Part shown: positions 1,119 to 44,300 of the stretch, piece by piece | Layout: every line of letters starts with the position of its first letter | How positions within the stretch are numbered: position 1 is the first letter of the stretch | Program-made: the position numbers and the translations under genes | The notes under the pieces: model-generated | Told to the model about the DNA's origin: nothing | Databases searched by the model: none | The model's input: only the letters and a program-made list of their open reading frames with translations | Assembly (NCBI GenBank): GCA_022497155.1 | Contig: MU385712.1 | Span: 557,765 to 621,764 of the forward strand | DNA from: Whalleya microplaca | Lineage: Eukaryota; Ascomycota; Sordariomycetes; Xylariales; Xylariaceae | Length of the DNA: 64,000 nucleotides | Reading direction: 5' to 3'

Positions 1119-3601
1119 TGTCGGTGTTGCTCTTTAGGCGAAAATAGGATCCAGCAAATCTTCACTTATGATATCTGCCATTAATTTTATCAATTATACT
1201 TCCAGCCGCTCCAGAGCAGTGACTTGAATGCTAAGTCAGATCGAATAAAGAGGCAAATCCGGGGACCAAAAGGTACCAATCGAGAACTGGGCTATGGCGC
1301 GCCATGATATCCTTTTTAAATGATTCTTGCGCTTCCAATGACCAGCCTAAATATTACCGGTCTCGATGCTCATGTCGCAGATAGCATGCATGAGCCGCAT
1401 GTGTCTCATTTAGGGTGTCTTGCTCACACATTTACCAGACTCAAAATGCTGTAATTGCCTGTAATCAAGCCCCCGTCTCGCGATAGAAGTTTAGCGGCGA
1501 AGGATCTGACTAGCCGCCGATGGTTGCACCCAACCAGCAGGTGGTCAGCAAGCTGTCCGCGGGGGGCGGAGGCACCTATTGGAGGGCCGGCAATCACCAA
1601 CGTCGCATTCGGTACTGAAATCGAGGCAATTCATTCAAAGCTACGGGACCGACCTGATTCTTGTCTTGAGGGACGGCCGGTACATTTATTAGCGAAAATA
1701 AAAGTATAAAATCTGTATCGGCACCGAAGCGATCCACCTATGGCTCGGCCCGCTCCCTAAGAGGAATGAGGGGAGACTGGGGAACCCTAGTTAAACTCGT
1801 ACTGAAACTTGGCTTAGATGTCAACTTGACAGGGTGCTTTCGGTTGCTATAAGATGGTAGTGAGACCCAGCGAGGGAGGAAGGGAGAGTTGCAGAACTAG
1901 AGATTGCCCAAAGAACTTAAAAATAAGCAGTGAGAATAGGGTCGTAATATTGATACTACACCGGATGACCCGATTCGCTAGCTGCTTTATTAGAGGGTTC
2001 TTCGCTTATGTAGGCAACCGACCCCATCATTTTGATAGGTTTGACAAGCGACTTTTGTGCCAAACGGCTGGAGCGTGAACTTCATGGCGCAGTGATATCA
2101 GTGATCTAGCGTAAGGCTCTTGCTATGCGAAACGATTGAAATTTTAATATACGTTGACTAGTTTCTAATTGAGTAGAAGCCTGCGGATTTTGGGACACGC
2201 GTCCACACAATCTATATTTATTCACTGGAAGTGTTCACTTGATATCTGCGTGCAACCATGCCAGTGTACAGGATCTCCTTGCATGGTTACAGTTGCACAG
2301 CCGATAGGTTGCATACTAGTACCTTACTTTGTGTCACTTGCGAGATAGGGCCGCCGAGCTACTTCACCGGTCCCGAGACAATGCATCAAGAAATATGTGA
2401 GATCAAGAAACAAGAAACGGAATTGTTGATCTGCTTTGATATCGTCTTATGATAGTTGAGGACCCTGGAACGAATATAAGGCCTCCAGTGTCTCTATTCT
2501 GAGGTATGTTGTAGCAATTGGGGGTCCAGCGCATTATATGGACCGCCGGTTCTGTTGGAAAAAGTGCACCAACTCACAGGCACCTAAAAGGTCATTGAGG
2601 AGTACCTGGTCTATCTACCATGAACTTTAACCTCCTTACCAACATGAATAACTATGGTGTTCTATTGAGGTTACGAAAGGAAAATATATATCGGCCTACA
2701 GCATGTACGGGTAATTATTGTGTCTTTTATACTTAAACAGCCGAGTAATTGAACTTTAACGCCATCCCGAACTTCTAGCCTTGCACATATTTCGACATTG
2801 CACTATTAAGACTTACGACCTATTGCTAGCTATTGATCTTCTGATATAAAGGCTACCTGTGTATTAGTACTTGAATATTCTACCATCTAACCCCCGTAGC
2901 TTATACACTTACATGGTACTTGAAATATTTTATTCCTTTTCTCGTGTCTGGAGCTATTCGTACAGCTTATTGGAACAAGTACCAGTTACGGATGGCGTGG
3001 ATTCGTTCGTACATACCGAAAAGCACAATTAATACTCCTGTGTGGCGTACATACGAGTAGTTCCGCAAGTACACCTTAATATAATAGTACGTTAATATGG
3101 ATAGAAGAACCTGCCTATGCTATTTTTTAATAACAGCACCGAGTAACATTTGATTAATTACACTTCGTTAAAAATCCTAAAGCCTCTAACAAAAGTGCAT
3201 TACAGAAGTTGAAGTTTTTGTATTGGGGTGGAGGTCTCTGCTAAGCTGTGTGAGAAATGTCAACTGGTACGTATTTATTCCTCAAGCATGTGACTATCCC
3301 ACATAATTGACGTTGGAGCCACATTTAGCACGGCCACTTGTGGCTAGCCTTTGCACTAACCCAAGAGCTCCTGTTATAGCTCTTTGGAAGCTATTTCCAA
3401 TTGACTGCATATATGTATTTTCCAGGATTATATTCTATTAAGGGAATGCTGGACGTACTCTGCAGTAGGGATTGGTTATCTGCAAGTCCTGCCGAGTTTC
3501 GTGTTTCGACTTCTAATTCTTCATTTTTTCACTCTCGGACACTTCCCCTCATCGTCCCTATTGATCATCAAGATCGTCCGCATCCTTGATATTTTGCAAA
3601 T
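1119..3601. other. Intergenic, no gene recognised
   Basis: About 2.5 kb between the divergent membrane-protein and ATPase genes, becoming AT-rich toward 2500-3400. Short open frames occur but none starts well, shows splice-consistent extension or resembles a known family. The last few hundred bases should hold the promoter and leader of the ATPase gene. Confidence 0.6.
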
Positions 3602-6600
3602 ATGGCATGTGGTTCAGGCTGTTGTGGGCCACCTGCTTCTCCAGCTGTCTCAGCTCAGGTCCAGGCTCAGTCTCAGACATCGTCCTCGGCTCCGGCCCCG
3701 GCCCCGGCTTCGTCTCCGGCTTCGGCGAAACAGCAAACTGTTGATGAGAAATGCCAGGACGAATGCTGTGCAGATGATGATGTTGCTTCTTGCCAAGATG
3801 ACTGTTGCGGTCCGGAGGAATCGAAGGCCAGCAACGCCAGCGACTGCTGCAAGTCTGTCGACAGGACCGATGACTGCTGTGCGCCCCAAGCCGACAATGT
3901 CGGAGATGGTTGCAAGGCTACCTGCTGTGCTACTTCCGCTGAAGTCATCCAAAGCGATAGTAAGGATGCTTGCTGTGCTCCTCCTGCGGTAGCTGAAGAC
4001 AGCTGCAAGGATAATTGTTGTGCTCCCCCCACCGCAACTGAAGACAGTTGCAAGGATTCTTGTTGCGCTCCCCCCGTCGAGGATGATGACAATTGCGAGG
4101 ATGCTTGTTGCGCAGCTCCTAACTTGGCCGCTTCAGACCCCAACGAGCCGGATTGCTGCAAGGGAAAATCCTCGCCCTGCTGCGACGCATCGTGCTTGGA
4201 ACGCCTAGCCCGTCGCTCTTGCGAGAACGATAAACTATCAAGCTCTTCTCAATGTAGTGGTAAGAACGAGGACGGCAAGCCATGCAGTAAGCACACTCGT
4301 ACCACACGCGAGCGTTATGCTGCTAAGCTAGAGGCACTTGGGTGCATTTGCCGTGCTCTACTAGCTCTCGGACAAGAGTCGTGCTGTGCACCTAAAGAGC
4401 AATCATCGGTCACAAAAAGACGAAGCTCTGGAAAGGCGCGTGCCTCAGTCGACTCTTGTTGTGCCGCCACTACCACCTCTACCCGTACCTGCAACAAATC
4501 AACTGTCAAGAAGCGACGTTCCAAGGACAGTTGCAGTCGGCCCACGTCGAAGCTAGTAGACGATGCCGATTCATGTGCTGGTGGTGACTGTTGTGACGAA
4601 AAGAAGGTGTCAAAAGCGACTGATGCAGTTAAGGCCATCTCTCATGATACGGCTACCATCGTTGACCTCGAACGGGGAACTACCGGCTCCGAGCATGTTA
4701 TCTTCAGCGTTTCAGGCATGACTTGTACTGGCTGCGAAACTAAACTGAGTCGCTCCCTCGCCGTTGTCCCAGGGATTAAGAATCTGAAGACCAGCTTGGT
4801 TCTATCCAGAGCTGAATTTGACATTAATCTTGCCACCACCTCCCCAACAGAGGTCATGAAGCACCTTGAAAGAACTACGGAGTTCAAATGCGAGAGGATC
4901 ACCAACCAAGGCTCATTCATCGATATCATCCCGCCGGGCAACCCCCAAGAGTTCATTGAGCAGGATTATCCAGTTGGCGTCTCAGAGATGACTCTTGTGG
5001 ACAAGAATATTGTTCGAGTGGCTTTTGATGCTAAGATTATCGGTGCTAGAGATCTCCTCACCCACGGCTTTGGGAAAGAAACTCCGTTGAAGCTCGCTCC
5101 TCTACAGGTGGATCCAACGGTTGAGGTGGGAAGCAGGCATGTTCGCCACGTCGGCTACATGACCATCCTGTCGGCAATCCTGACTATTCCAGTCCTTGTT
5201 CTAGCTTGGGCACCACTTCCTGAGCATGAAATTGCCTACGGATCTGCCTCTCTGGCGCTAGCTACTATCATTCAAGTCGTAATAGCTGGACCGTTCTATC
5301 CGAAATGCTTCAAGGCTCTGATCTTCTCTCGTGTTATAGAGATGGATCTTCTCATTGTACTCAGCACTACGACGGCTTACGTCTTTTCTGTCGTGGCGTT
5401 CGGGTACCTTGTTTCCGGACACCCTTTATCAACCGGCGAATTCTTCGAAACAAGTACACTCCTAGTTACTCTGATAATGGTTGGTCGTTACGTGGGTGCT
5501 CTAGCACGCCAGAAGGCTGTTGAATCCATTTCCGTACGCTCTTTACAGACACCAACGGCCACACTCGTAGGAGATGATGGCGAGACTGAGATTGACGCGC
5601 GCCTACTTCAATACGGAGACCAATTCAAAGTAGCCCCTGAATCACGTGTACCGACTGATGGTACCGTTGTATCGGGCGAGTCAGAAGTGGACGAGTCTAT
5701 GATAACCGGCGAATCAAGGCCGGTAGAGAAGAGAGTCAAATCGACCGTTGTCGCTGGCTCTGTCAATGGCTCCGGAGCTTTGGTCGTGCGCTTGACGCGC
5801 TTGCCTGGAGAGAATACTATAAGCAATATCGCGCTTATGGTCGATGAAGCTAAGCTATCCAAACCTAAAATGCAGGATCTCGCGGACAAAGTCGCGAGTT
5901 ATTTTGTACCAGTGGTGCTTTGCCTGACTGCTATCACCTTTGTCATATGGATTGCCATAGGCGTGGCTGTGAGAAAACAATCAGGATCGGAAGCTGTGGT
6001 TAACGCGATCACCTATGCGATTACTGTCCTTATTGTTTCTTGCCCGTGTGCCATCGGCTTGGCAGTTCCAATGGTAGTCGTCATTTCATCCGGTGTAGCA
6101 GCAGACAAAGGCATTATTTTCAAGAGCGCAGAAAGCATTGAAATGGCTTACAAGACCTCCCACGTTGTCTTTGACAAGACAGGGACACTTACGCAGGGGA
6201 AGCTCACTGTAGCAGTGGAAGATTGGGCAGCAGGTGGCCGAGATGAATCGACTGCCAGTCTTCTTCTAGGCCTCGTCGGCAGCAACAAGCATCCAGTATC
6301 CACTGCGGTAGCCTCTCACCTCAAACGGGACTTATTCGCAGCTACGGATCTCAAAGATGTTAAGAACGTAGTAGGGAAGGGTGTACAAGGTGTAAGTCCT
6401 TCTGGCCACATACTGCGCGCGGGAAACTCTCGCTGGCTTGGCTTGTCATCCGCTCCCCGCGTCAGCACCATTCTGGCAAATGGCTATACCGCTTTCTGCT
6501 TTACAATTAACGGCTCTCTCGCTGCTGCTTTCGGCCTTGAAGACTCACTCCGTCCAGACGCCGTGGCGACAGTTTCCAAACTCCAAGGCCGCGGTATTAC

Positions 6601-7129
6601 CGTATCCCTCATTTCCGGCGACGACGATGGTGCTGTCCGATCAACGGCAGCCCGTCTTAATATCCCTGATGGCCACGTTCGTTCCCGCTGCAGCCCGAGC
6701 GATAAGAAGACCTACATCCAAGACCTCCTGGCCACTACGGCTGTACCCGCAAAGCTCGGCAAGAAGGCGAAACCTCCTGTAGTCATCTTTGTTGGTGACG
6801 GGACTAACGATGCTGTTGCGCTCGCCCAAGCCACCATAGGAATCCACATCAACGAGGGCACGGACGTCGCCCAGTCTGCTGCCGACGTGGTGCTGATGCG
6901 ACCGAATCTCCTGGGCATCGTTACGGCTATCGACACGAGCGAGGCTGCCGTCCACCGCATTATATTCAACTTCGGCTGGAGCTTCGTCTACAACCTGTTT
7001 GCCATCTTGCTAGCGGCGGGAGCGTTCGTGAACGCGCGTATCCCGCCTGAGTTTGCTGGGCTGGGTGAGATCGTGAGCGTGCTCCCCGTCATCGCTGCTG
7101 CGGTGCTGCTCCGCTGGAGCAGGATTTAA
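3602..7129 (+). CDS. Heavy-metal (Cu/Cd) translocating P1B-type ATPase with long Cys-rich N-terminus
   Basis: Single exon, 1175 residues, starting at MACGSGCCGPP. The first ~340 residues are Cys-rich with 15 CC pairs, many in repeats of the form DSCKDxCCAPP. One heavy-metal-associated domain follows (GMTCTGC near residue 372). The P-type ATPase core carries TGES (~702), the metal-selecting membrane motif CPC (~814), the phosphorylation site DKTGT (~857) and the hinge GDGTNDA (~1064), with eight likely membrane helices. All catalytic motifs are intact. CPC places it among monovalent-metal or cadmium pumps. The CC-rich extension recalls Aspergillus CrpA and yeast Pca1, which export Cu or Cd across the plasma membrane and give tolerance. 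Export of Cu/Cd is therefore likely; the exact metal is not decided by sequence alone. Confidence 0.95.
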   Translation: MACGSGCCGPPASPAVSAQVQAQSQTSSSAPAPAPASSPASAKQQTVDEKCQDECCADDDVASCQDDCCGPEESKASNASDCCKSVDRTDDCCAPQADNVGDGCKATCCATSAEVIQSDSKDACCAPPAVAEDSCKDNCCAPPTATEDSCKDSCCAPPVEDDDNCEDACCAAPNLAASDPNEPDCCKGKSSPCCDASCLERLARRSCENDKLSSSSQCSGKNEDGKPCSKHTRTTRERYAAKLEALGCICRALLALGQESCCAPKEQSSVTKRRSSGKARASVDSCCAATTTSTRTCNKSTVKKRRSKDSCSRPTSKLVDDADSCAGGDCCDEKKVSKATDAVKAISHDTATIVDLERGTTGSEHVIFSVSGMTCTGCETKLSRSLAVVPGIKNLKTSLVLSRAEFDINLATTSPTEVMKHLERTTEFKCERITNQGSFIDIIPPGNPQEFIEQDYPVGVSEMTLVDKNIVRVAFDAKIIGARDLLTHGFGKETPLKLAPLQVDPTVEVGSRHVRHVGYMTILSAILTIPVLVLAWAPLPEHEIAYGSASLALATIIQVVIAGPFYPKCFKALIFSRVIEMDLLIVLSTTTAYVFSVVAFGYLVSGHPLSTGEFFETSTLLVTLIMVGRYVGALARQKAVESISVRSLQTPTATLVGDDGETEIDARLLQYGDQFKVAPESRVPTDGTVVSGESEVDESMITGESRPVEKRVKSTVVAGSVNGSGALVVRLTRLPGENTISNIALMVDEAKLSKPKMQDLADKVASYFVPVVLCLTAITFVIWIAIGVAVRKQSGSEAVVNAITYAITVLIVSCPCAIGLAVPMVVVISSGVAADKGIIFKSAESIEMAYKTSHVVFDKTGTLTQGKLTVAVEDWAAGGRDESTASLLLGLVGSNKHPVSTAVASHLKRDLFAATDLKDVKNVVGKGVQGVSPSGHILRAGNSRWLGLSSAPRVSTILANGYTAFCFTINGSLAAAFGLEDSLRPDAVATVSKLQGRGITVSLISGDDDGAVRSTAARLNIPDGHVRSRCSPSDKKTYIQDLLATTAVPAKLGKKAKPPVVIFVGDGTNDAVALAQATIGIHINEGTDVAQSAADVVLMRPNLLGIVTAIDTSEAAVHRIIFNFGWSFVYNLFAILLAAGAFVNARIPPEFAGLGEIVSVLPVIAAAVLLRWSRI

Positions 7130-11620: not shown

Positions 11621-13032
11621 TCAAGCACCCACCTCCCTCAGACTCTGAACCGTATCCACGACGCTCTTCTCAATGGGGATCCAATCGATGCCCAAGACCT
11701 TCGTGGCGCGCGAATTATCATACTTGTACGTGCCCTCGGGTGGGAAGCCGCCGCCCGGCGTATCCTTCTCGGGCAGCTTGTCCGCCAAATCGGGGAAGTT
11801 CTCGCGCACGACCTGCACGATCTTGCGGTTATCATAGTACCCCGCGGTGGTGAAGAAGCGCAAACCCCCCGCCTCGGGCCGGTCCTGCGCCGCCACGTGC
11901 GCGCGCGCGACGTCGCGCACGTCGACCCACAGGAACACGCCGGAGGGCGGGATCGCGCCGGCGGCCCGCCACCCGCCCTGGATCAAGTCCACGAACCGCC
12001 CGTTCGACGTGTTGATCGCGGACAGGCTGTTGAGGTGGTGCACGACGGGGCCGAAGACCATCGGCGGGCAGATGGTCGCGACGTCGAAGTTGGGGTGCTC
12101 GCGCGCGACGAAGTCCCAGGCCGCCTTCTCGGCCTCCTTCTTCGACACCCGGTACGCGGTCGCGGGCGACCCCGTGAGGCCCTCCTCGTATGTGGAGGGG
12201 TTCCAGTCCGCTTCGCTGAATACCTTGTCCGGGTTCCCGAGCTCGGCCTCGTTGATTAGGGCTGCGAACGAGCTCGTGATCACGATCCGCTTCACGCTCG
12301 GCGCGTACTTCTTCACTGCCTCGAGCACCGACGTCGTGCCCTTGATCGCCGGGTCCAGGAGCTCGGTCTTGGCGTCCGTCCACTTGAAGTGGAAGGGGGA
12401 CGCGGTGCTGTGCGGAAGAACTTAGAGTTAGTATATGAAAGTAAAGTAAACGCGCTTTTCAGTCACCTAATTTAACCTAGGTAGGGGCCTCGAAGGTCAT
12501 GACTCGGATATTCTAATTACCGAACTCCCGAGAGACATCGCCCATAGGTCGACAGACTGGGATGGAAAATAAAAAACGAGGGAATACGTACTGCTGCACG
12601 TACTCGAGCCCCGGCGTGGCCTTTACGACCTCATCGAAGGCGTTGGGCGCCGCGACGTCCGGCACGATGGCGACGGTGAGCTTTGCGCCCGGGTGCGCGG
12701 CGCGGATGGCCGCTGCCTTGTCCTCGGAGCGCACGGTGGTCACGACTTCGTGGCCGCGCTTGAGGAGGAGCTCGAGGACGTGGGCTGGGGGATTTGTGTT
12801 AGTTTTGCGTGTGTAGTTCCCCCGGGAGGAGAGAAGAGACGATTTCGCTGAGCGTCTTCTGGAACGTACCGGCGATGAAGCCTGATCCACCTGTTTGTTC
12901 ATCAACATCGTCAGCATTGCTCTTCTACTTATTCGGCTATCTATCGGCGCAGCGGCGCATCACGATGGCTTCGCGACGGTAGTGCGGGGTACGTTTTTCT
13001 CGCTACGAACCTGTAAGGAGTACCTTCGGCAT
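11621..13032 (-). CDS. NAD(P)H-dependent aldehyde/ketone reductase, extended SDR (Gre2-like)
   Basis: Four exons on the minus strand: 13032-13011, 12890-12870, 12784-12592 and 12407-11621, giving 340 residues. The first two exons are only 22 and 21 nt and together build the start MPKVLLTGGSGFIA, the Rossmann TGGSGFIA motif. Later features are a nucleotide-binding TVRSEDKAAAI stretch, ITSSFAAL (Ser of the active site) and YRVSK (the YxxxK catalytic pair). Length and motifs fit the family of yeast Gre2 methylglyoxal/isovaleraldehyde reductase and plant dihydroflavonol-4-reductase relatives, which reduce aldehydes and ketones in the cytosol. The substrate cannot be told. The large last exon is strikingly GC-rich, producing long open frames in other frames that are not genes. 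Confidence 0.92.
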
Positions 13033-14279
13033 TTCGTCTATCTCGGGGTATCAAAAGGTGTCAATTGAGAGGTATAAACTTGAGGAATCTACAAGAACTT
13101 GCTATCCTAAACTTCTGGCAGGTTTTCCGGGGCCGACTCGTTATTTATTTATACAGCCTCGAAAGCCTCGAACCCAATTCATCCGAGGAATGGCAACATC
13201 GCGGGGGTTGCACCCGTTGATTTATAACGTCACCAGCAGCTAAGGTAAGGGTCCATTGTACGAGAAGTCTAATCTCCACCCGCTTTCGGCGATAACTACC
13301 AGGTATGTATAGTGTAGGTATTGTATAGGCAATACTATATACCTACATAGTAGAACGAACAGGGCAGCAGGGGGGAACCACTTATCATCATCGTGGTGAT
13401 AAGGGGATGGATGGATGCTGTAGCCTTATTATTAATGGCTCGAATTTTCCCGCGACCAAGCGAGTTGCTGTTCTCTCTCCTCGCCGCTGCCTGAAGAGGT
13501 TAGGAGAGGCGTCTAAAGACCGAAACGACACCCCCGGCAAAGATATCGCCTACGCGGTAAACAGTTAGCGTCGCATTCGGCTATTACCTCTCATCCTCTT
13601 CGGCGTTAATATAACGTGATCTGTAAGTGCGAACCTACGGATGACTACGTAGATCTGACAATAGGGGCATCCGTGGCGTTTGGATTCTTGTACTACGGTA
13701 TAGAGCTGATCGTCGTTACTCTTCAACAGTCTCCAATTGTTCAGACAGTTGTTGTTCGGCGTTGACTAATTCTCCGTGCTTGATGACCCGCATGAGCTGC
13801 CAACCTAAGGCGGGACCTGCTAACTAGCGCTGGGTAGCGCTGTTAGGGATTAACTTCATCGCAGCATTAGTACGTAGTCTAGCCACAGATCGCCCGTGAG
13901 AACATTCGCCCTAGCGGTGCGTTATACCTGTCTGTAGTAGGAAACTCGATGAAAATAACCTCAAGAAAGCACGGAAAACAAGCTTTGTTCATGTCTATCT
14001 TGCGTCTCTATTATAGCACACCGTGGACGCCAGATCATGAAACCCGACCAAGCACGGGTGCGTAAAGGCGGCGACGACGTCGGATGCCCATGCGATCCAG
14101 AGTCCTAGTCCTACTCTACATGCCTCTAAAGCCCCGGCTTTCTGTCCTTACAACAAAACAAGTTGCAGAAAGCCTCGCATCTAGCTAGCTAGCTAGCCCT
14201 CCTACCCGGGCCATAACAACTAGAACAGAATCTACATGCAGTTTTCTTTTTTCCAACAAGGATGTCAGACCATACACCC
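13033..14279. other. Intergenic, no gene recognised
   Basis: Spacer between the promoter of the reductase and the 3' end of ufd2. It contains imperfect inverted repeats near 13310-13355 and 13380-13412 and a short AGCT repeat near 14180-14197. No gene seen. Confidence 0.55.
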
Positions 14280-33220: not shown

Positions 33221-33223
33221 TAA
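33221..33223 (+). other. Left target-site duplication TAA
   Basis: TAA flanks the left terminus of the transposon and is repeated at 36724-36726. PIF/Harbinger elements insert into TWA sites and duplicate three bases, so both the sequence and the length fit. Confidence 0.75.
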
Positions 33224-33263
33224 CCCCCCGATCGACAAATCGTTAGGCTGAGACTGATCGGTC
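33224..33263 (+). repeat. Left terminal inverted repeat of Harbinger-like element
   Basis: The inner 33 bp (33231-33263) match the reverse complement of 36684-36716 at 30 of 33 positions, starting ATCGACAAATCG and ending AGACTGATCGGTC. The outer 7 bp differ mostly (C-rich here, GGCCCTA at the other end). Confidence 0.9.
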
Positions 33264-33520
33264 TATTAAGGTACATTTGCCTGCATAAAAATTTCGGCTA
33301 ATTCCGTTATACCTCCTTAGAACCCCTATATTACACCTTACCTACTATAGTTAGTTAAATCTACCTAATTCCACTTCTTTTAATTATTCCGTAAGCCGTT
33401 TTTTTCTCGGATATCTTGTAATAACTACAATATAACGTTATGTAACTTTTTAAGCCGAAATAAAATCGAAAATAAATTTAAAAAAATGGAAAATAGTTAA
33501 GGAGACACTTTTTAATAAAT

Positions 33521-34600
33521 GGCTGTTAAATTTAGTGGCTCGTATTTAAATTTAGCAGCTATTAGGGCAATAAGTGGCGAGGATATTGCTTTTATTAATA
33601 AAGCTGCCAGGGATTTTTTTTTTAATAATTTAAGGGTATTTTTAATAATTCCTAACGTTAGTTAAGATTTTTCCGATAAGGCTATTATCGACTTAACCGA
33701 TACCCTTTCGCTTCCGGCTATTAATATCGATTTAACCGATGTTTTGCCGCCTCCGGCTGTTAATATCGATTTAATTACTCCCGTTTTAGCTCCGGCTATT
33801 CCTTAGCGTTTAAAGTTAATAATGCCGAAGTTAGTAACGCCGAAGTTAGTAAAATTAAAGGCAGTAATACCGAAAACAGTAACCCTTATAGCTTTACCCG
33901 CGCCGGCGTTAATTTTAAAATAAACCCCGGAAATAAACTTTTTTTTTATGTAGTATTTAATGTAAGCTTATAATAATAGCGCTTTAATAACGATTTATAG
34001 TGCTGCTTTTCGGCCGGTATAAGATTAAATTAGTGAAGCTATAATTAAGGAGTTTTTTAGCCGGCCTTTTATATAAAAAAAAATACAGTCGAAATAAAAT
34101 AGTGAGAAACGAAAATATCGGTAATATAAAACGCTAATATAAAAATCTGGCGTTAAAGTTAACGAACGCGGGTATATTTAAGCGTTTCCGGTAGTTTAAA
34201 AGGACTTTATATTTAAATTTCCTAAGGCTGCTTAGTTACGGATTACCTTGTTAAGTAACGATATCGATATATATAACGAGGTTTTTTTTAGGAAGTCGGC
34301 ATTCGGTAACTTTATTAGGAATATAAAAAACGAAGATAACGTCTTTAAAATTTTTATAAAAAATAATAATAATATTATAAAAAACCTTATTATTACATAA
34401 AAAGTTAGCGAAAATCCGGTATCTAATAATAAAAAAAGTCTCGATTTTAATAAAAATTCGGAGATTATTAACGATAGCGACGTTACTAATACTTTTGTAA
34501 GGCTAAAAAAGCTAAAATCTAAGCCGTTAAAAAACCTTTTTATAACAGTTATTAAAAGAGCATTTTTTTAAATGTTATATGCCTTTAGCTATAATAACGT
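33521..34600 (+). pseudogene. Degenerate second frame of the transposon
   Basis: Reading from ATG 33521 gives a plausible start (MAVKFSGSYLNLAAIRAISG) that meets several in-frame stops within 150 bases. It includes a near-duplicated segment (AINIDLTDVLPPPAVNIDL) and farther on KNSEIINDSDVTNTFVRLKK. It faces the transposase, in line with the second (Myb/SANT-like) gene of PIF/Harbinger elements, but no Myb motif survives to prove that. Confidence 0.4.
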
Positions 34601-34927
34601 TAAAAAAGCTATTTAGGAATTCTAAAAAAACTTCGGAAAGAAAATAATAAATATTTAAATAATTCGAGTTATTAAGGAATTACGGGATCCCTTAAATGCT
34701 GTGGTTTTTTTAAACCTAAGTAAGGTTAATTAAAAGGTATATTTAAAGTTTTTAATTAATTAGCTTTATGTTATAGTAGTTAAGGAAGTTTAAATATGTT
34801 GCTATAATTATTTTTCGTACTAAAATTATATAAGGAATTACATATACGCGGCATTTGAAAGATCGCCTAACTACTGTGCTTAAGAGAGTATATAAAAAAC
34901 GGCCATCCAGTAATAGAGTAGCGTAGC

Positions 34928-35041
34928 AGCTATAATTGATTTTTATTATTATAATCGACTTTGTAGCTGCAATTAATTTTATTACGGCAATCGATTTTTT
35001 AGCTGCAACTAATTTTTATTATAGCAATCGATTTTTTAGCA
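34928..35041 (+). repeat. Tandem repeat, about 37 bp x 3, inside the transposon
   Basis: Units start near 34928, 34965 and 35001, each with an AGCTGCAA-like head, a T-rich middle and an ATCGATTTTT-like end. The units differ mostly by transitions, as expected for a RIP-mutated repeat. Confidence 0.7.
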
Positions 35042-35324
35042 GCTTTTAAACCTAATTAATAATTATAATAGCCACTATTTTTTAATAATTATATTTAATA
35101 AGGCTGACTTTTTAGTAAGGCTAATAAGTCACATGTTTATTATAATTACTCGCTTTTTAACATATTTGTAGCTAAGTAATTTCGATACTTATTTTATATT
35201 TATATAGTAATCCGATAACGTATATAACGAGGTTTTTTATTACAAATACGCCGATTTGCCCTCTCTCGAGCTTTAGTTAGGCATTTTTGCTATTTCCGAG
35301 ACAATCTCGATTTTTAGCTGCCGT

Positions 35325-36060
35325 TACTGTTAATAATTTTTTGTGCCTTAATAAAGTTATAGAGGCTATAGACGGCATATATAATTCGAATTTAAGTATA
35401 TAGTTTATATTTTGCTGTCGAGCTACGGATAATCTTGAATTTTTTTTTTAGTATGCCGAAAATTTGCTTTACGATAACCTTTAATCTCGAATAACGGAGG
35501 TTATATAACTTTTTCGACGTTTAAGGCTTATAAATAGCCTGCCGCCACTTTTATAAATAATATCGTACCTTTAAGAAAGGTATAACCACTCCTTTTTTGT
35601 TACTAAAGCTAGCGTTTGCTAAGTAAAATTTACTAAAAGGTATGTTAAATTTTCCGGCTATGGCGTTTAATAATAGGTTATTATTATATATTAAACCTTT
35701 TGCCTTAGCTAATACGTAATTAAAGGTGCTATCGAATTTTATAGCCGCAAATACGTTTTAAGAAATAAATCCTTTCCGATTGCGTTATTGTTTTTGGCTA
35801 TTACGTAATATAAATGTGTGTATGTGTGTGCTATTTATAATACCGATAGCACCGTTAAAAGCATTTAAAACCGGGTTTAATTCTACTTTTTTAGCTACGT
35901 AATCGGCTGCCGGCTATCGAATAAAAGTTTTATATAATTAGACTATTCGGATAAAGATATATTAAAAGATTTTTAAGACTATATTTTAGCTAACTTTAAA
36001 TCGATAGGCAGCATTTTATTACGGTTTATTATAAGCTATTATTTATAAAAATATCAATAG
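35325..36060 (-). pseudogene. RIP-damaged PIF/Harbinger DDE transposase
   Basis: The minus strand translates, through at least five stops, into the Harbinger DDE domain order. From the N-terminal side it reads NAFNGAIGIINSTHIHTF (family: GAIDGTHI), then a degenerate RNRKG motif (family: R-x-RKG), FDSTFNYVLAKAKG (family: FTYVLAGWEGS) and KFYLANASF (family: YLADAGY). After that come GVVIPFL, YNLRYSRLKVIVKQIFGILK (family: FNLRHSSLRNVIERVFGVLK) and VYSLYNFIK (family: ALHNFI). Catalytic Asp codons are replaced by Asn or Ser, the G-to-A change expected of RIP. The enzyme would bind the inverted repeats and cut and paste the element; this copy cannot. Confidence 0.82.
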
Positions 36061-36683
36061 TTTTTATTTAGCAGTTATATATTTAATTAATTTACGAAAA
36101 TCGGTATTAGTTTAAAGCTATTTTAATAGTTTTTTAAAGACTGTTTTAAATATTTAAAACAGCTTTTAAAACCTTTTATTTAGGCCGTTTAAAAGTATTT
36201 TAATAACTTTCCGGCTTTTATTAAAATTGTTATTATATTTTAAACGCCGACTATTTGCTAATTTTGCTAAAAATTATTAACGTGGTCGATTTAAGCGTAT
36301 TTAACGTAAAGCAGCTATTATAGTTATAGCAAACGCCGAGCGCCGGCGTTAATAATTATTTATCGAGAATCGAAATATTTACTTTCTAAAGGCGCGTTAT
36401 ACGTAATTTTAGCTTAATAAATTAGCTTGTGCTTATTTATCGAGAATTAGTTTAAAATTAATCGATTAAATAAGTTTTTTACGCTAATTACTTAGTAATT
36501 AAGCTGTTTATTAACTAGTAATAAGCTATAAATCCACAGATATATTTATAAATTAAGGAAAATTTACATAGCTAGCCTGAGATTAGTCTGGCATTACATA
36601 ACAATAAGGTAGGTCGAAATTACTGCCAAAAAGGGTATAAAGCTGACTTATTAGCGTCTTTAATTTATGTTTGTGCAAGCCTT

Positions 36684-36723
36684 GACCGATCAGTCTTAGC
36701 CTGCCGATTTGTCGATTAGGGCC
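36684..36723 (-). repeat. Right terminal inverted repeat of Harbinger-like element
   Basis: Reverse complement begins GGCCCTAATCGACAAATCG, typical in starting with GGC after the TWA target. The inner 33 bp match the left repeat at 30 of 33 positions. Confidence 0.9.
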
Positions 36724-36726
36724 TAA
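36724..36726 (+). other. Right target-site duplication TAA
   Basis: Immediately follows the right terminal repeat and equals the TAA before the left repeat at 33221-33223. Confidence 0.75.
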
Positions 36727-38336
36727 TAGTACGGTAGGTAGCAGGGTAGCAGTGGCTGTTTGCCATGTACATATGTACTTGCAGTATCATTGCTACATTA
36801 CCTACATTATCTCTTTATTTCTTTCTCTCTCCAGTCTCTCTCTCACTTTCAGGGGTGATAGGACTAGGTAGGAAGACTATTACATAGTAAAAATTTAATT
36901 TTTTTTTCTTCATTCAATCTTTCACCACATACTCACTTTCCCTCTAGTTCGGTTTGTTGGGCACATCCCACCATATCAACATACCTTATCCATGTGCAAT
37001 TAGATGTGTATGTGTGTCTGATATACATATACATATATACATATACATATATCCATACATACATATTCCGCACCATTAAAGGCCATTCAAAGCCATTAAA
37101 GCCATTTAAGCCATTAACAAACTACCGGATACCTAACTACCTACCTACCCTTAAGTACCCATCCACCATCCTTACACCATACAATTACATACGCACCATA
37201 CGGAATACTTACATACTCCATCCCATCCCATCCCACACTTGTGACTATCATGCGTGCACATACCTTCATGTGCCGTCGCGGACGGGGATAATTCCTGATA
37301 ATGTCCCTCTCCTTGGCAACATTTGGTCGATCTGGAACTTGACATAAGTGCTAAGCTGCTAAGTCAACTTGACCTACCATTAAGTAACTCGACCTTTTTA
37401 CATACGCATACATCAGTACCGTGGAAATCGTCCCTTCACGTCCCTCATCCACCACTCACAGACTCGAACCCGAACTCGAATGCAGAGAAACCCTGAAACC
37501 TCTGAACTCTGAACCTCTGGAGTCTGAACTCTCCTAATCCATCACAACAAAGTTCTCTTCTGCCTACACGAGGCCACACAAGCCATTATCGCATTACCCT
37601 ATTGCGAATACCTCGAAATACCTTTTTTCCCTTAAGCTTCTGCAGCAGGCCTTGGCCCCTTGGCCTTCACCCCTTCACCTTTCCGCCTTTCGTCTTCTCA
37701 CTTTCTCTCCCCTGGTCACCTTGTCGCCTTGTCGCCTGAACGCCTGAACGCCTTGTCATCTTGGGGGGTCATTACGAAACTTCCACTTTCATCCCAACAT
37801 TTTACATACTTTTTTCTTCTCCCGCAGCAAAATCGCAAAATCCGTTCATTCATTCCATTTGTTTGATCTGATACCCCCTCCTGGACCGTCCGTCTTTTTG
37901 TGATCAACTGACAGTTTGTCCAATAATTGTCTAATAATTCATATCCCCGGTCGGTTTTTATGTTCAAGGGGGCCGTCTCGTATCACATGTAGTTTTGCGA
38001 CCATCGATCTAAATCGACCAAATTCGACAAAATTGACCAAATTACCCAAATCGCCGCGACGAAGATCAGATCAGCCAAACCCCCCAACCCTGATACAACC
38101 TCTTCCCACTTACTCAGCCACCGACGTACCATCATTGCATCGGCATCAGCAGCAGCAGCAGCCAACTGCTCCCACCGTCCGTGCTCCGCTACATAAGAAG
38201 GGGGGCCAAATCAGGAAATAAAAAATAAAAATAAAATACAATAAAATAGGAGACACCCATATCGTCCTCACGGCCTGCTTCACTGCCGCCTCATGCGGTT
38301 GACCGACTCGCAGCTACGGTGCGACCGACCGCTCCA
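36727..38336. promoter_or_regulatory. Upstream and leader region of the DOCK gene
   Basis: A long pyrimidine-rich segment (36800-36960) is followed by an ATACATAT microsatellite (about 37021-37068), a run of GCCATTAAA-like decamers (37072-37116), GCCTGAACGCC/GCCTTGTC repeats (37725-37755) and GACCAAATT repeats (38015-38045). A CAGCAG run lies at about 38145-38162. Short upstream frames occur at 37960-37992 (10 codons plus stop) and 38293-38421 (out of frame, overlapping the main start). The real transcript start is not visible, so which of these lie in mRNA is unknown. Confidence 0.45.
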
Positions 38337-41300
38337 ATGCCCTGGCAACCGCTGCCCCGTATCGCCTTCGCCGTCGCGACCTACCCCTTCGAGACCAAGG
38401 TCGAGAACGAGCTCCCGCTAGAGATTGGCGATGACCTATATATAATAGAAGAGACTGTCGACGGCCAATGGCTGCGCGGCTACCTGCTGGCACCGCCCTC
38501 GCTTCTGGCCGGCCTGACCTCTGTCAAGGGCCAGACCCTCGAGGCTCGTGTCTTCTCGGGCATCTTCCCGCGCAGCTGCGTTGAGATACGCGAGGTGCTC
38601 GGTGATGAGGAGGGCAGCTCAGACTACAATGGCAGCCGGCAAGGGGACGAAGACGATGTTCCGCATCTTGGTAGCGACTCCGGGAAGAGCGGTGTGGGTT
38701 CGACAAGAGAACAGCGCAAAAGCAAGTCCGCACAGCCTCCGAATGGCACCATATTAGGAAGAGGACAGAGGGCTATTGCTGCCTCGGAGCTGCGGACCCG
38801 TGACCCGAATGCGCCCAAGCCCGCTGCCCCCGTCCCTATGCTGAGACTCGGCGACGAGACCCCTACGTCTGGCGCGGAACCCTTGATTGACGAGATTGCA
38901 TCATGTCTGCGCGAGTGGCACTCGACCAACTTCCACGAACTACTTCTTACTCGGCAATATTCCAAGCTGGACAAGGTGTCCCAGCTCATTCAGACTCTAG
39001 ATACCTCGAGACGACAATTTCTACATAACCTCCTCACAACGCGCGAGTATAGTACGTTACGGGAGAAGACAGTATGGGATCTGGTCAGAGGGAACAAGCT
39101 GTGTGGAGGGGAAGTCATTGTGCGTGACCCGCATGAGCGAGGAAGAGTTCTAACTGGGGACGATCCTGTTGTGCACATCACCAAGTTGCAGTCGGTAATG
39201 AGTCTGTTGGACGAGCCGCCGCAGCCACAAGTTGAACTCTCGGCTTTGCATCACCTGATGGTCGATGTGAAGAGCTTTGCTGGATCTTCGAACGAACCCA
39301 CTACGCTGGTGATGTACCTCGTCAATAAGTCGGTAGGGGGCGCCTTGACAACCCTCTCGGAAAGCTACATGATCGATGTACCCTCAGGTGGTACAATGGG
39401 ATTTCTGGCTAGGAATACCCAGATGCGCACCTTGTTCACCGACCTCACCTCTGCCGACATTGGCGATGGGCCATCAGCTGATTCGGAACTGTACTTGATT
39501 GTCAAGGTCCGCACGCCCCAGCAAATTAATGCTGGAAAGCCTGTGTCGCGGGCCGGATCTTTTGCCTCGCCCGGCACGCCGTTCTCCAAAGATCACCCTT
39601 CGTCGTCTGGTAGTACTAAGACTTCTAGGAGGAGTATGATGTGGGGATCGACTAGGTCTGCGTTCTCACGAGCGGGAACGAAGCTTGACGCATTATCCGA
39701 ACAGCCCGAAGAGCCGCAGCGGCCACGAACGGAGACTATCAGCAGCCGGGATGAACGAGTACCTCCGAGCACGGCCGGCTCCTCAAGAGCGCCGCGCTCA
39801 TCTGTGGAGGGCCAAGGATCGCAAATGATGGCGGAGAGGATGGTAGGCATCGGGGTGCTGAGCTTGAATCCTATCATGAAGCAAGACGAAGATTCCGAGC
39901 ACGTGGTTACAGTCTGGTCACCCTCGGCGAGGTTCATCACCGAGAAATTGGACAACGCTGAAGGATGGGACGGCCTAGTTCGAGACCTCCTGGAAAGCAA
40001 ATCGGGCCACTACGAGAAGTCTAGAGGCGCAGAACGGTTGCAGGTCCACTTGAAGGCTTTCAACAACCCCGATGCCGATGCTCTCATCAAGGCAACCCCG
40101 ACGTTGCTCTCTGGAATCAGCAAGACGAGCAAGATGGGGTTCTCTGGCGCGCCGACGAAGCCTCGTTCTGATATCTACGTGACTATTACCGAGGCTCTTT
40201 TGGCTCGACAGAACCTACTTTCGCGATTTGCTTCAAGTGCTACCTCGATAGCGCACAGCATGCACGGCAGTAATTTGATAGTCTCGCTAGAAGTGCGGCG
40301 TCAGTCCGGGGACCGCATTGAAAACTGCATATATCAATCTTCGAACTCCGAGGCACTGTCTTCATGGCAGTCGTTTGCCGTAGAGCGCGGTGAACACTGG
40401 GATCAGACTCTCCGACTTTCTCTTCTACCTCCTGATGTCACCACGTCGCATCTTGTGCTCACCGTCTCAGACCTGCCCAATACCCCCTTTGCGATCGCAC
40501 ACATGCCCCTCTGGGATCAACAAGCCTTTATCAGTGATGGACCCCATTCTCTACTTCTCTACAAGCTTGATGAACATATCCATACCGCACTACCGGGACC
40601 GTCCGGGAAGGGCGGGTACTTATCCCTCCCTTGGTCTGCTCGCGGCGATTCGAGCGAGGTTACCGGCCCACTTGCGACGCTTAAGCTCGACACATACCTT
40701 TGCAGCACACGATTTTCTCAGGACCGAATTATTCTAGGCCTGTTGAGATGGAGAGAGGGTTTCAAGGATGACATACCGGCATTACTGAAACAGTTAATAT
40801 TTGTACCAGAGATCGAGGTTGTGAAGCTGCTGAGCGATGTCTTGGACGCACTTTTTGGCATTCTAGTTGAATATCAAGGCAACGACGAATACGAAGACCT
40901 CGTTTTTACAGCACTCGTCCGGGTCCTGGGCATAGTCCATGACCGTCGGTTTAATTTAGGACCTTTGGTTGACCACTATGCCGAAAGCAAGTTTAACTAC
41001 CCCTTCGCAACGCCCTGCCTTGTCAGATCTTTCACACGATTACTCACAAAACCGACCGAGTCCGAGACGGCTCGAAAGTTACGCGCAACCCTCAAGGTCG
41101 TCCGCCAAATCCTGAAATTCATTACTCACGCTAGAGGCCAGCAGAAAGTTAAGGAGGCAGGCATTGGCATTACGAGCAGTACGCCTAGCTTCACACGACA
41201 TCTCCAGAGTATCTTCAAGGCCCTCGACTCGATGATGCGAAGTACCGCACCTGTCCTTGTCGGAAGCCAAACTTTGGCGGTTCAACATTTCCATACCTGG

Positions 41301-44300
41301 TTACCGGAGCTCTCCGGATTGCTTACCACTGAGGAAATATTACACATAGCCATTGACTTCATGGACTCGTGTGCTTTAGTCAAGGGCAAGCTGGTATTGT
41401 ACAAACTCATCTTGATCATCAACTACTCTAAGCTAGACCTTTTCTCGCAAGCCGACCAACGGGCTGCTCTTAGTGCGAACACAGTCCGTTGGATTGCGCC
41501 ACATTGGGGCCGGACCGACGATGTCACGGAGCAGTGGAAGGAGCAAGTTCGACTTTGCTGCTCAGTCATGGCCAGCCAGGTAGAATATCTGAACACGGAG
41601 ATACCAGACTATATCCCGAAGATTATAGATTCATATCTGGCTATCCAGGCTACGGAATTGAAGCCTAAGAACAAACTTTCATTACTTTTTCCTACTTCCT
41701 ACCCCTTCCCTTCCAAAACAATATCTGTCGACCCTGTCCAATTCGATGAGGCGTTAATAGAGCTGTCAGCCATCTTATCTGCGCTCTCGAACTCACCTAA
41801 CGGGATGCAGCTCGAGCTTGCTGCAGACGATCTCACAAAGCTTTTGAAAAACACATTGCAGGTGCATATGAGTATACTACTCGGTGAAGCTTTCCCGTCA
41901 AGCTGGCTTAGTGTATATATCTACCATCACAAATCAACAATGAGGACATTGCAATATATTGCGAGTATCCTTTTGGAATCCTTTTTGCCGGATCCCGACG
42001 AAGCCGAGGACTTTGACACGGATCTTTGGCGGATGTTTTTCACGACGCTCCTCAAACTCGTTGGCAGTGGGTCTTTAGCGCTTGAAACTTTCCCAGAGCA
42101 GAAGCGGAGAGCGGTATGGAAGATTGCCGGTGATGTCAGAGAGCATGGCGCAGAGCTGTTACGGCGGACTTGGGAGGCTATTGGATGGGAGACCAGCCCT
42201 GACGAGAGGACACGGTACGGGCTAACAAAGATGGGTGGCTATCAAGTCCAATATGTACCTACTCTTGTTGGTCCCATTCTCGAGCTTTGTTTGAGCGTCC
42301 ACGAAGGGCTAAGGCGAATGGCTGTCGAAGTCCTCCAAACGATGATTGTCAGCGAATGGACGCTAAGCGAGGACTTGTCTGTCATCCAGACGGAGATGAT
42401 CGATTGTCTGGATGGTTTCTTCAAAGATAAGACCATGACGGAGAGTATCTTGCAGAAGCTCTTCGTCGACGAGCTTCTCGAACGCTTCGAGCCGTTGGCG
42501 CAAGTCGACGGAGATCCCTTGTATGCTGCACTCAAGAGTCTGGTTGAAACGGTAGCCGAATTCTTAGACCTTCTGGTCGCTGTTCACAGTGGAGATGTCA
42601 CAAGTGAAGCTTCTCATTTGATTAACCGCTTACAGCTCATGGAGTTCCTTAGAGACATGCAAAAGGAGGAGATATTTATCAGATATGTCCACCAGTTGGC
42701 AGAACTGCAGTCTAATGCTAGGAATCACACGGAGGCTGGTCTAGCTCTCCGACTCCACGCTGACCTATACGATTGGGAGCCTACTAAATTAACGGGTCCG
42801 CTACATGATCCAGACCTTCCCGAGCAATCGCATTTCGAACGCAAGGAACGCCTGTACTTCGATATGATCAAGCACTTTGAAGATGGAGAGGCTTGGAGCA
42901 TTGCCCTGGCTGCCTACAAGGAACTTCAGTCGCAATACGAAAGCAACATATACGATTTCGCTAAGCTCGCAAGAACGGAGAGAGCTATTGCAACCATACA
43001 CGAAACTCTAGCTAAGGGCGAGAAATTGGTACCGAAGTATTTCAAGGTCGTCTATAAGGGTCTTGGTTTCCCGGTAAATCTACGTGACAAGGAGTTCGTG
43101 TACGAGGGCCCGCCTGCTGAGCGTACATCTTCGTTCACGGACCGCATGCAGGAGCAGTACCCCGCTGCACAGATCATGACCTCTAGCGATGTTGACAGCG
43201 AAGTCGAGGGACAATACTTAGTTGTCTCGGCACTCAGCCCGCATCGTGATCTCAGCCACGCCGTATTCCAGCGGGCACGAGTTCCGCAACCTATTCGGGA
43301 TTACCTTCTTTCAGCACACGCCCAGATGTTCTCGGTATCTTCGAAGCGCAGCACAGGTGGCCCAGTCAATACGCACTATGCCGAAAAGACGATATACACT
43401 ACAGCTGAGCCATTCCCTACGATTCTGCGGCGTAGCGAGATCGTGGATGTCCAGACAATACATCTAAGTGCGAAAGAGACAGGGCTTGAGCGCATTGTCC
43501 GCAAGACCCAGGAGATGACAGCGGTGGAGAAGCGACTGGCCGAAGAGGATGACAACGAAATTGCGCAATTGATGGTCGATGCTATCAGCGTCTCGGTGAA
43601 CCCTAACTCGGAGTCTAGCGTTGCCTGTTACCGGCAGCTTCTTCCTTCCAAATCCGAGGAGGATGAAGAGCCCGAGCTGGACCACCAGGAAAATGCGATC
43701 AAGATGGCTCTCGTCGATCATGCCATTATGATTAAGAGATGTCTAGCTAGCTTCGCTCGTAGTTCGAACCCAATCCTCCTCAAGGGCCACGAGGATCTGC
43801 ACAAACGTAAGCTAAGCCCCAGTGAATTTTGCTACCCGTACGTCTGCTAACATTGACACAGATTTCATGTCTACCTTTGCCCCAGAGATAGAAGTGTTTG
43901 CGCCTGTCCAGCCGGCTCGCAGCAATACTCCCCCTGTACCGTCGCCTACTTGGCGCCAATCATCCCCCACTGAGCACACATCGCCCAAGGTTAAGCTGCC
44001 TTCATCGCCAATAACTAACGGTAACGGCGTCGGCGTGGTTGAAGAAGCATCAGCAGCCCAACCAATCTCCTTACGGCAGCGCGGCACGCGACTCAGCTTC
44101 CTGAACGGCAAGAAGAAGGAATCCATACACTCCAACGGCGACGCGCTGAGCTACAGACCCACGAAGGGCGACAGCGACTCGAACAGCATACAGAGCAAGA
44201 ACAACAAGGACCACTCGAACTCGAACTCGAACTCGAACTCGAACAACAACCGGAGAAGCATATTCCGGACGCCGTCGAACGACAGCTCGCTGCCGCCGCT

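What the first reader, a model, noticed from the sequence alone, without database searches (positions are those of the whole stretch)
33221..36726. Complete PIF/Harbinger element with ends and target duplication still visible
Inverted repeats (33224-33263 and 36684-36723) plus flanking TAA and a faded DDE transposase give class, boundaries and orientation by sequence alone. Few annotators would find it because no frame is open. A full-length 3.5 kb copy gives a reference for finding relatives and non-autonomous derivatives in this genome.
Basis: partly seen in the sequence, partly recalled or inferred. Interest (0 to 1): 0.78.

Follow-up and report, generated by a model that had tools for sequence, protein, structure and literature searches.

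The report
RIP-mutated PIF/Harbinger DNA transposon
This is a complete but inactivated copy of a common kind of cut-and-paste jumping gene, most likely in a fungus and riddled with mutations of the fungal repeat-silencing type; it is a sound annotation but an ordinary one.

Summary
Window 33221-36726 is a 3,506-bp element with 40-bp terminal inverted repeats (33 of 40 match), identical TAA flanks and a broken DDE transposase on the minus strand. Six copies with both ends were found: three long (about 3.5 kb, one split by a Gypsy-type retroelement) and three short (727-748 bp). Five of six have identical TWA duplications. Two long copies differ by 401 transitions and 3 transversions, so 'faded' means hypermutated while nearly identical, as RIP does, not old. 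In the window copy the D, D and E motif positions read N, N and K. A second, Myb/SANT-like gene is plausible but unproven. Verdict: new member of a known kind, low surprise. Species not identified; Repbase not available.

The parts
33221..33223 (.). left copy of the TAA target-site duplication
   Evidence: matched by 36724-36726
33224..33263 (+). left terminal inverted repeat (begins CCCCCC)
   Evidence: 33 of 40 positions match the right arm; the same end type in four other copies
33519..34934 (+). candidate second gene (ORF1), broken by many stops; weak Myb/SANT-like signal; limits uncertain
   Evidence: Myb_DNA-bind_3 below cut-off: E 0.3 in this copy, E 0.056 in the C29 copy beside two unrelated families at E 0.044 and 0.051, nothing in the C10 copy; no homologue in two protein searches
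34934..35040 (.). 36-37-bp tandem repeat between the two candidate genes
35266..36450 (-). broken DDE transposase (limits approximate)
   Evidence: DDE_Tnp_4 26.2 bits, cut-off 24.8; 30.3 bits in the genome search; five proteins with DDE_Tnp_4 at E 1e-77 to 6e-40; motif positions D, D, E read N, N, K
36684..36723 (-). right terminal inverted repeat (begins GGCCCT on the minus strand)
36724..36726 (.). right copy of the TAA target-site duplication

Best explanation
A PIF/Harbinger cut-and-paste DNA transposon, most likely of a filamentous fungus, now dead. Shown: matching terminal inverted repeats, TWA target duplications, a DDE_Tnp_4 transposase gene on the minus strand, related copies at other loci, and almost purely transition-type differences between the long copies. 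Inferred: the transposase, probably with a DNA-binding ORF1 protein encoded convergently, once excised the element and inserted it at TWA; after it had multiplied, the host's repeat-induced point mutation (RIP) turned C to T on both strands, filling the genes with stops and changing acidic motif residues. Short copies keep both ends and would have moved only with transposase supplied in trans.
For: Ends and TSD; family members in the same genome; DDE_Tnp_4 over cut-off; five protein relatives, of which two bear species names, Fusarium oxysporum and Gaeumannomyces tritici; RIP-like composition: TA/AT 1.36 and (CA+TG)/(AC+GT) 0.52 in the element against 0.80 and 1.19 to its left and 0.85 and 1.15 to its right; 401 transitions to 3 transversions against the C29 copy; two short copies (C13, C30) match bases 3-273 and parts of about 3003-3506 of the long element.
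Against: ORF1 is not established. One of six copies (C13) has unequal flanks, TTA and TAA. The left end begins with C in five of six copies, whereas the first base of PIF/Harbinger TIRs is usually A or G (PMC4482050, section 5). DDE_Tnp_4 fell just short of the cut-off when the whole frame was scanned (23.5 of 24.8 bits); the C29 copy stays below it (20.6) and the C10 copy is not among the genome hits. No empty site was examined.
Confidence: 0.96

Rival explanations
1. A sister group of the same superfamily (NuwaII, NuwaI, Pangu or ISL2EU) rather than PIF/Harbinger proper.
For: All have similar DDE transposases; NuwaII uses C|TNA|G, which overlaps TWA (PMC4482050, passages). The C29 copy sits in C|TAA|G.
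Against: Of six copies only C29 has both the C before and the G after the duplication. The duplications are TWA, not ANT, CWG or AT. No tree was made.
Confidence: 0.03
2. An ancient relic eroded by ordinary mutation rather than a young element killed by RIP.
For: 88% identity between long copies and no open frame.
Against: Only 3 transversions in 3,490 aligned bases against 401 transitions; the other four long-copy comparisons give 1-3 transversions each.
Confidence: 0.02
3. A single-gene element with no ORF1: the left half is non-coding, and the Myb-like score is noise.
For: The Myb score stays below cut-off; in the C29 copy two unrelated families score as well; the C10 copy gives nothing; two protein searches found nothing; the genome search for the Myb family found only a gene on C33. 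One minus frame has as few stops or fewer (32, 29, 33).
Against: Overlapping stretches of the same frame score in two copies, that frame has the fewest stops of the three plus frames (33, 31 and 33 of 542 codons), and the only internal length difference in the aligned left halves is 15 bp, a multiple of three.
Confidence: 0.25

Closest known systems
PIF/Harbinger group of the PHIS superfamily (PMC4482050: passages and section 5 seen)
   Same: TWA target duplication, TIR under 60 bp, DDE_Tnp_4-type transposase, length (3.5 kb) of the order of the reported average of about 4.1 kb
   Different: left terminus begins with C; second Myb/SANT gene unproven; the three long copies are heavily mutated
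Tourist-like MITEs mobilised by PIF/Harbinger (PMC2836001: start of abstract seen in the search listings only)
   Same: short copies keeping both ends, in two of three with identical TWA flanks
   Different: only three short copies with both ends found here (a lower bound), at 727-748 bp, so no MITE-scale amplification seen
Single complete Harbinger in Mycosphaerella fijiensis (PMC3562529: passages seen)
   Same: a highly mutated Harbinger in an ascomycete
   Different: insertion site given there as CTC, and no conserved domain could be detected; here TWA and a detectable DDE domain

Membership tests
PIF/Harbinger | 3-bp TWA target-site duplication | tested here: met
   Five of six copies with both ends have identical TAA or TTA flanks (C3, C29, C30, C10 split copy, C10:529159-529903); C13 reads TTA and TAA
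PIF/Harbinger | terminal inverted repeats | tested here: met
   33 of 40 in the window copy; both ends seen in six copies
PIF/Harbinger | DDE_Tnp_4-type transposase | tested here: met
   below cut-off (23.5 of 24.8 bits) when the whole 1,168-codon frame was scanned
PIF/Harbinger | second ORF with Myb/SANT domain | tested here: inconclusive
   weak sub-threshold matches in two of three copies; no homologue; genome search did not reach this place
PIF/Harbinger | first TIR base usually A or G (a tendency, not a strict criterion; PMC4482050) | tested here: inconclusive
   right end G in the six copies; left end C in five of six
PIF/Harbinger | helix-turn-helix motif in the transposase | not tested
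   no separate test; the predicted structure was too poor to use
PIF/Harbinger | transposase releases the element and inserts it at TWA | not testable with these tools
   needs an assay, or strains with and without the insertion
NuwaII | C|TNA|G target | tested here: not met
   both flanking bases present in one of six copies

The most novel reading that the evidence does not exclude
The family is a natural experiment on the limits of RIP: three 3.5-kb copies, near-identical before mutation, are saturated with RIP-type changes, while three 727-748-bp derivatives show no RIP signature (two of them share about 270 bp and 300 bp of end sequence with the long copies at 76-88% identity, the third is more distant). 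Deletion derivatives of a fungal Harbinger may thus escape the genome defence through small size or divergence, and outlive the parent element.
Probability: 0.3. Interest if true: 0.35.

Novelty: new member of a known kind. Interest (0 to 1): 0.2.

Why it matters
It gives exact ends, orientation and a small set of relatives for annotating this repeat family, which gene finders would miss. It shows that reading stops through, without de-RIPing, sufficed here to recover the transposase class, and that transversions rather than overall identity show how alike RIPed copies were. The mutated long and unmutated short copies could serve to test what RIP spares. None of this overturns anything known about PIF/Harbinger.

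Tried and rejected
Structure prediction of ORF1 (mean pLDDT 32.6) and of the transposase with five relatives (37.8) was too poor to use, so no fold search was made. The transposase had no sequence match in the PDB at E up to 1. No homologue of ORF1 was found with one copy or with the three-copy alignment, nor a convincing counterpart in the six fetched neighbourhoods of other DDE_Tnp_4 loci and partial relatives (best E 9.2 for the plus frame; a minus-frame control profile reached E 0.018 on L037). Rfam found nothing over gathering scores in the window, ARAGORN no tRNA. Self-comparison of the four other DDE_Tnp_4 neighbourhoods gave many inverted pairs in AT-rich DNA, of which the few that bracket the transposase are weak (24-50 bases, 76-92%), so their ends stay undefined. 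Literature searches: 3 papers found, 3 listed; 20 of 47 listed; 20 of 161 listed; 7 of 7; none of the listed titles and abstract starts struck me as describing this family, but only passages of PMC4482050 and PMC3562529 and one section of the first were read. Tc1/mariner was considered because of the TA inside TAA; the DDE_Tnp_4 domain and TWA duplications speak against it. The species was not determined; that the host is a fungus is inferred from the RIP-type mutations, two fungal names among the protein relatives and neighbouring domains such as the PCA1-type metal domain.

Full report
Observation. The two 40-bp arms match at 33 of 40 positions, beyond 20,000 random pairs (best 21) and 10 crude block shuffles (best 24, where the element's best is 34). 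TAA flanks both ends. No frame is open. The loss of CA and TG dinucleotides runs from the left end to about 36.6 kb; the last 130 bases or so are less depleted. The composite RIP index agrees at 1-kb scale (0.51-0.93 over the element), but it is noisy: one 200-base bin just left of the element is higher still (1.73), and five other kilobases of the window are slightly positive (0.06-0.37).

Family in the genome. The genome (G000, 48.1 Mb, 114 contigs) holds a second long copy on C29 (3,490 bp, 88%) and a third on C10, whose halves match the element end to end but lie about 9.6 kb apart. The interrupting stretch carries RNase H and integrase zinc-binding domains, a Tf2-type SH3 domain and a sub-threshold chromodomain match, as in Ty3/Gypsy elements. 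Of twelve frame translations scanned, the six minus ones gave nothing, two plus ones hold these domains, one holds a sub-threshold NB-ARC match and three nothing. Three short copies with both ends exist: C13 (727 bp with flanks), C30 (748 bp) and C10:529159-529903 (745 bp). Partial relatives lie on C19 and at C29:540841-540941. Counts are lower bounds, as the tool says. Five of the six copies with both ends have identical TAA or TTA flanks; C13 has TTA on one side and TAA on the other.

Transposase. Reading stops through on the minus strand gives DDE_Tnp_4 at 26.2 bits against a cut-off of 24.8, 30.3 bits in the whole-genome search with four stops inside, and 23.5 bits, just below cut-off, when the whole frame was scanned. 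In the genome search C29 stays below cut-off (20.6) and the C10 copy is absent, though both match relatives by tblastn. A search of about 5.8 billion proteins gave five hits at E 1e-77 to 6e-40, all with precomputed DDE_Tnp_4. Two bear species names, Fusarium oxysporum and Gaeumannomyces tritici; the two best bear none. Against these five the window copy reads N for D in the IDGTH-type and YLADAGF-type motifs and K for E in the VE(Q/R)AFG-type motif; each change fits G to A on the coding strand. That these positions are the catalytic triad is recalled family knowledge. The C29 copy reads N, N and K as well; the C10 copy reads N and K but keeps D in the second motif. C29 also has a one-base gap inside this gene and its frame shifts.

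Second gene. The left half may encode ORF1 on the plus strand, convergent with the transposase. Support is thin: sub-threshold Myb_DNA-bind_3 scores in the same frame of two copies and none in the third, with two unrelated families scoring as well in the C29 copy; fewest stops among plus frames, but as few or fewer in one minus frame; and a 15-bp in-frame length difference. Two protein searches and a genome search for the Myb family gave nothing at this place.

RIP and age. Between the window and C29 copies there are 401 transitions and 3 transversions in 3,490 aligned bases; the four comparisons with the C10 halves give 1 to 3 transversions each. The copies were therefore nearly identical when mutated (inference). 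The short copies lack the signature: TA/AT 0.89-1.0 and (CA+TG)/(AC+GT) 1.26-1.62, against 1.29-1.36 and 0.28-0.52 in the long copies. C13 and C30 differ by 35 transitions and 25 transversions in 691 aligned bases, which suggests an older, separate lineage. They match bases 3-273 and, with gaps and a short unmatched stretch, parts of about 3003-3506 of the long element in the same order, as internal-deletion derivatives would. The third short copy was not in that comparison; it is more distant (71% over 251 bases of the right end; pieces of 73-89% to C13).

Termini. In five of six copies the left end begins CCC and the right end, read inward, GG; only the short copy at C10:529159-529903 begins with GG at both ends. 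The outermost two bases thus fail to pair, yet four of those five copies have matching duplications.

Classification. TWA duplications, TIR and DDE_Tnp_4 fit PIF/Harbinger as described in PMC4482050 (passages and section 5). Sister groups with other target duplications are disfavoured; the C|TNA|G context of NuwaII is met by one of six copies. Other DDE_Tnp_4 loci on C2, C57, C14 and C4, each with 6-7 stops inside, show further Harbinger-like relics in this genome.

Verdict. A correct, careful first reading of an ordinary thing: a RIP-killed PIF/Harbinger with deletion derivatives, most likely in a fungus. Whether the family already has a name could not be checked.

Noticed in passing
L035:2978-9001 and L036:1-3618 (G000 C10:162977-172618): A Ty3/Gypsy-type retroelement region (RNase H, integrase zinc-binding, Tf2 SH3, sub-threshold chromodomain), also AT-rich, splits the C10 copy.
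   Followed up: partly
G000 C2:401714-402196, C57:154146-154625, C14:163678-164139, C4:1497925-1498338: Four further DDE_Tnp_4 loci over the cut-off, each with 6-7 internal stops.
   Followed up: partly
window 33224-33225 and 36722-36723: The outermost two bases of the TIRs do not pair (CC left, GG right read inward) in five of six copies.
   Followed up: partly
window 33813-33857: A 15-bp tandem repeat inside candidate ORF1; here the window copy is 15 bp longer than the other two long copies.
   Followed up: partly
window 3602-7126: Large ORF with heavy-metal ATPase domains (PCA1-type HMA, E1-E2 ATPase) and a cysteine-rich N-terminus, underlain by 45-bp DNA repeats.
   Followed up: no
window 38319-43847: DOCK-family ORF (DOCK_N, C2, TPR, DHR-2) about 1.6 kb to the right of the element.
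   Followed up: no
window 12001-14000: Two kilobases with a mildly positive RIP index (0.15 and 0.37) away from the element.
   Followed up: no
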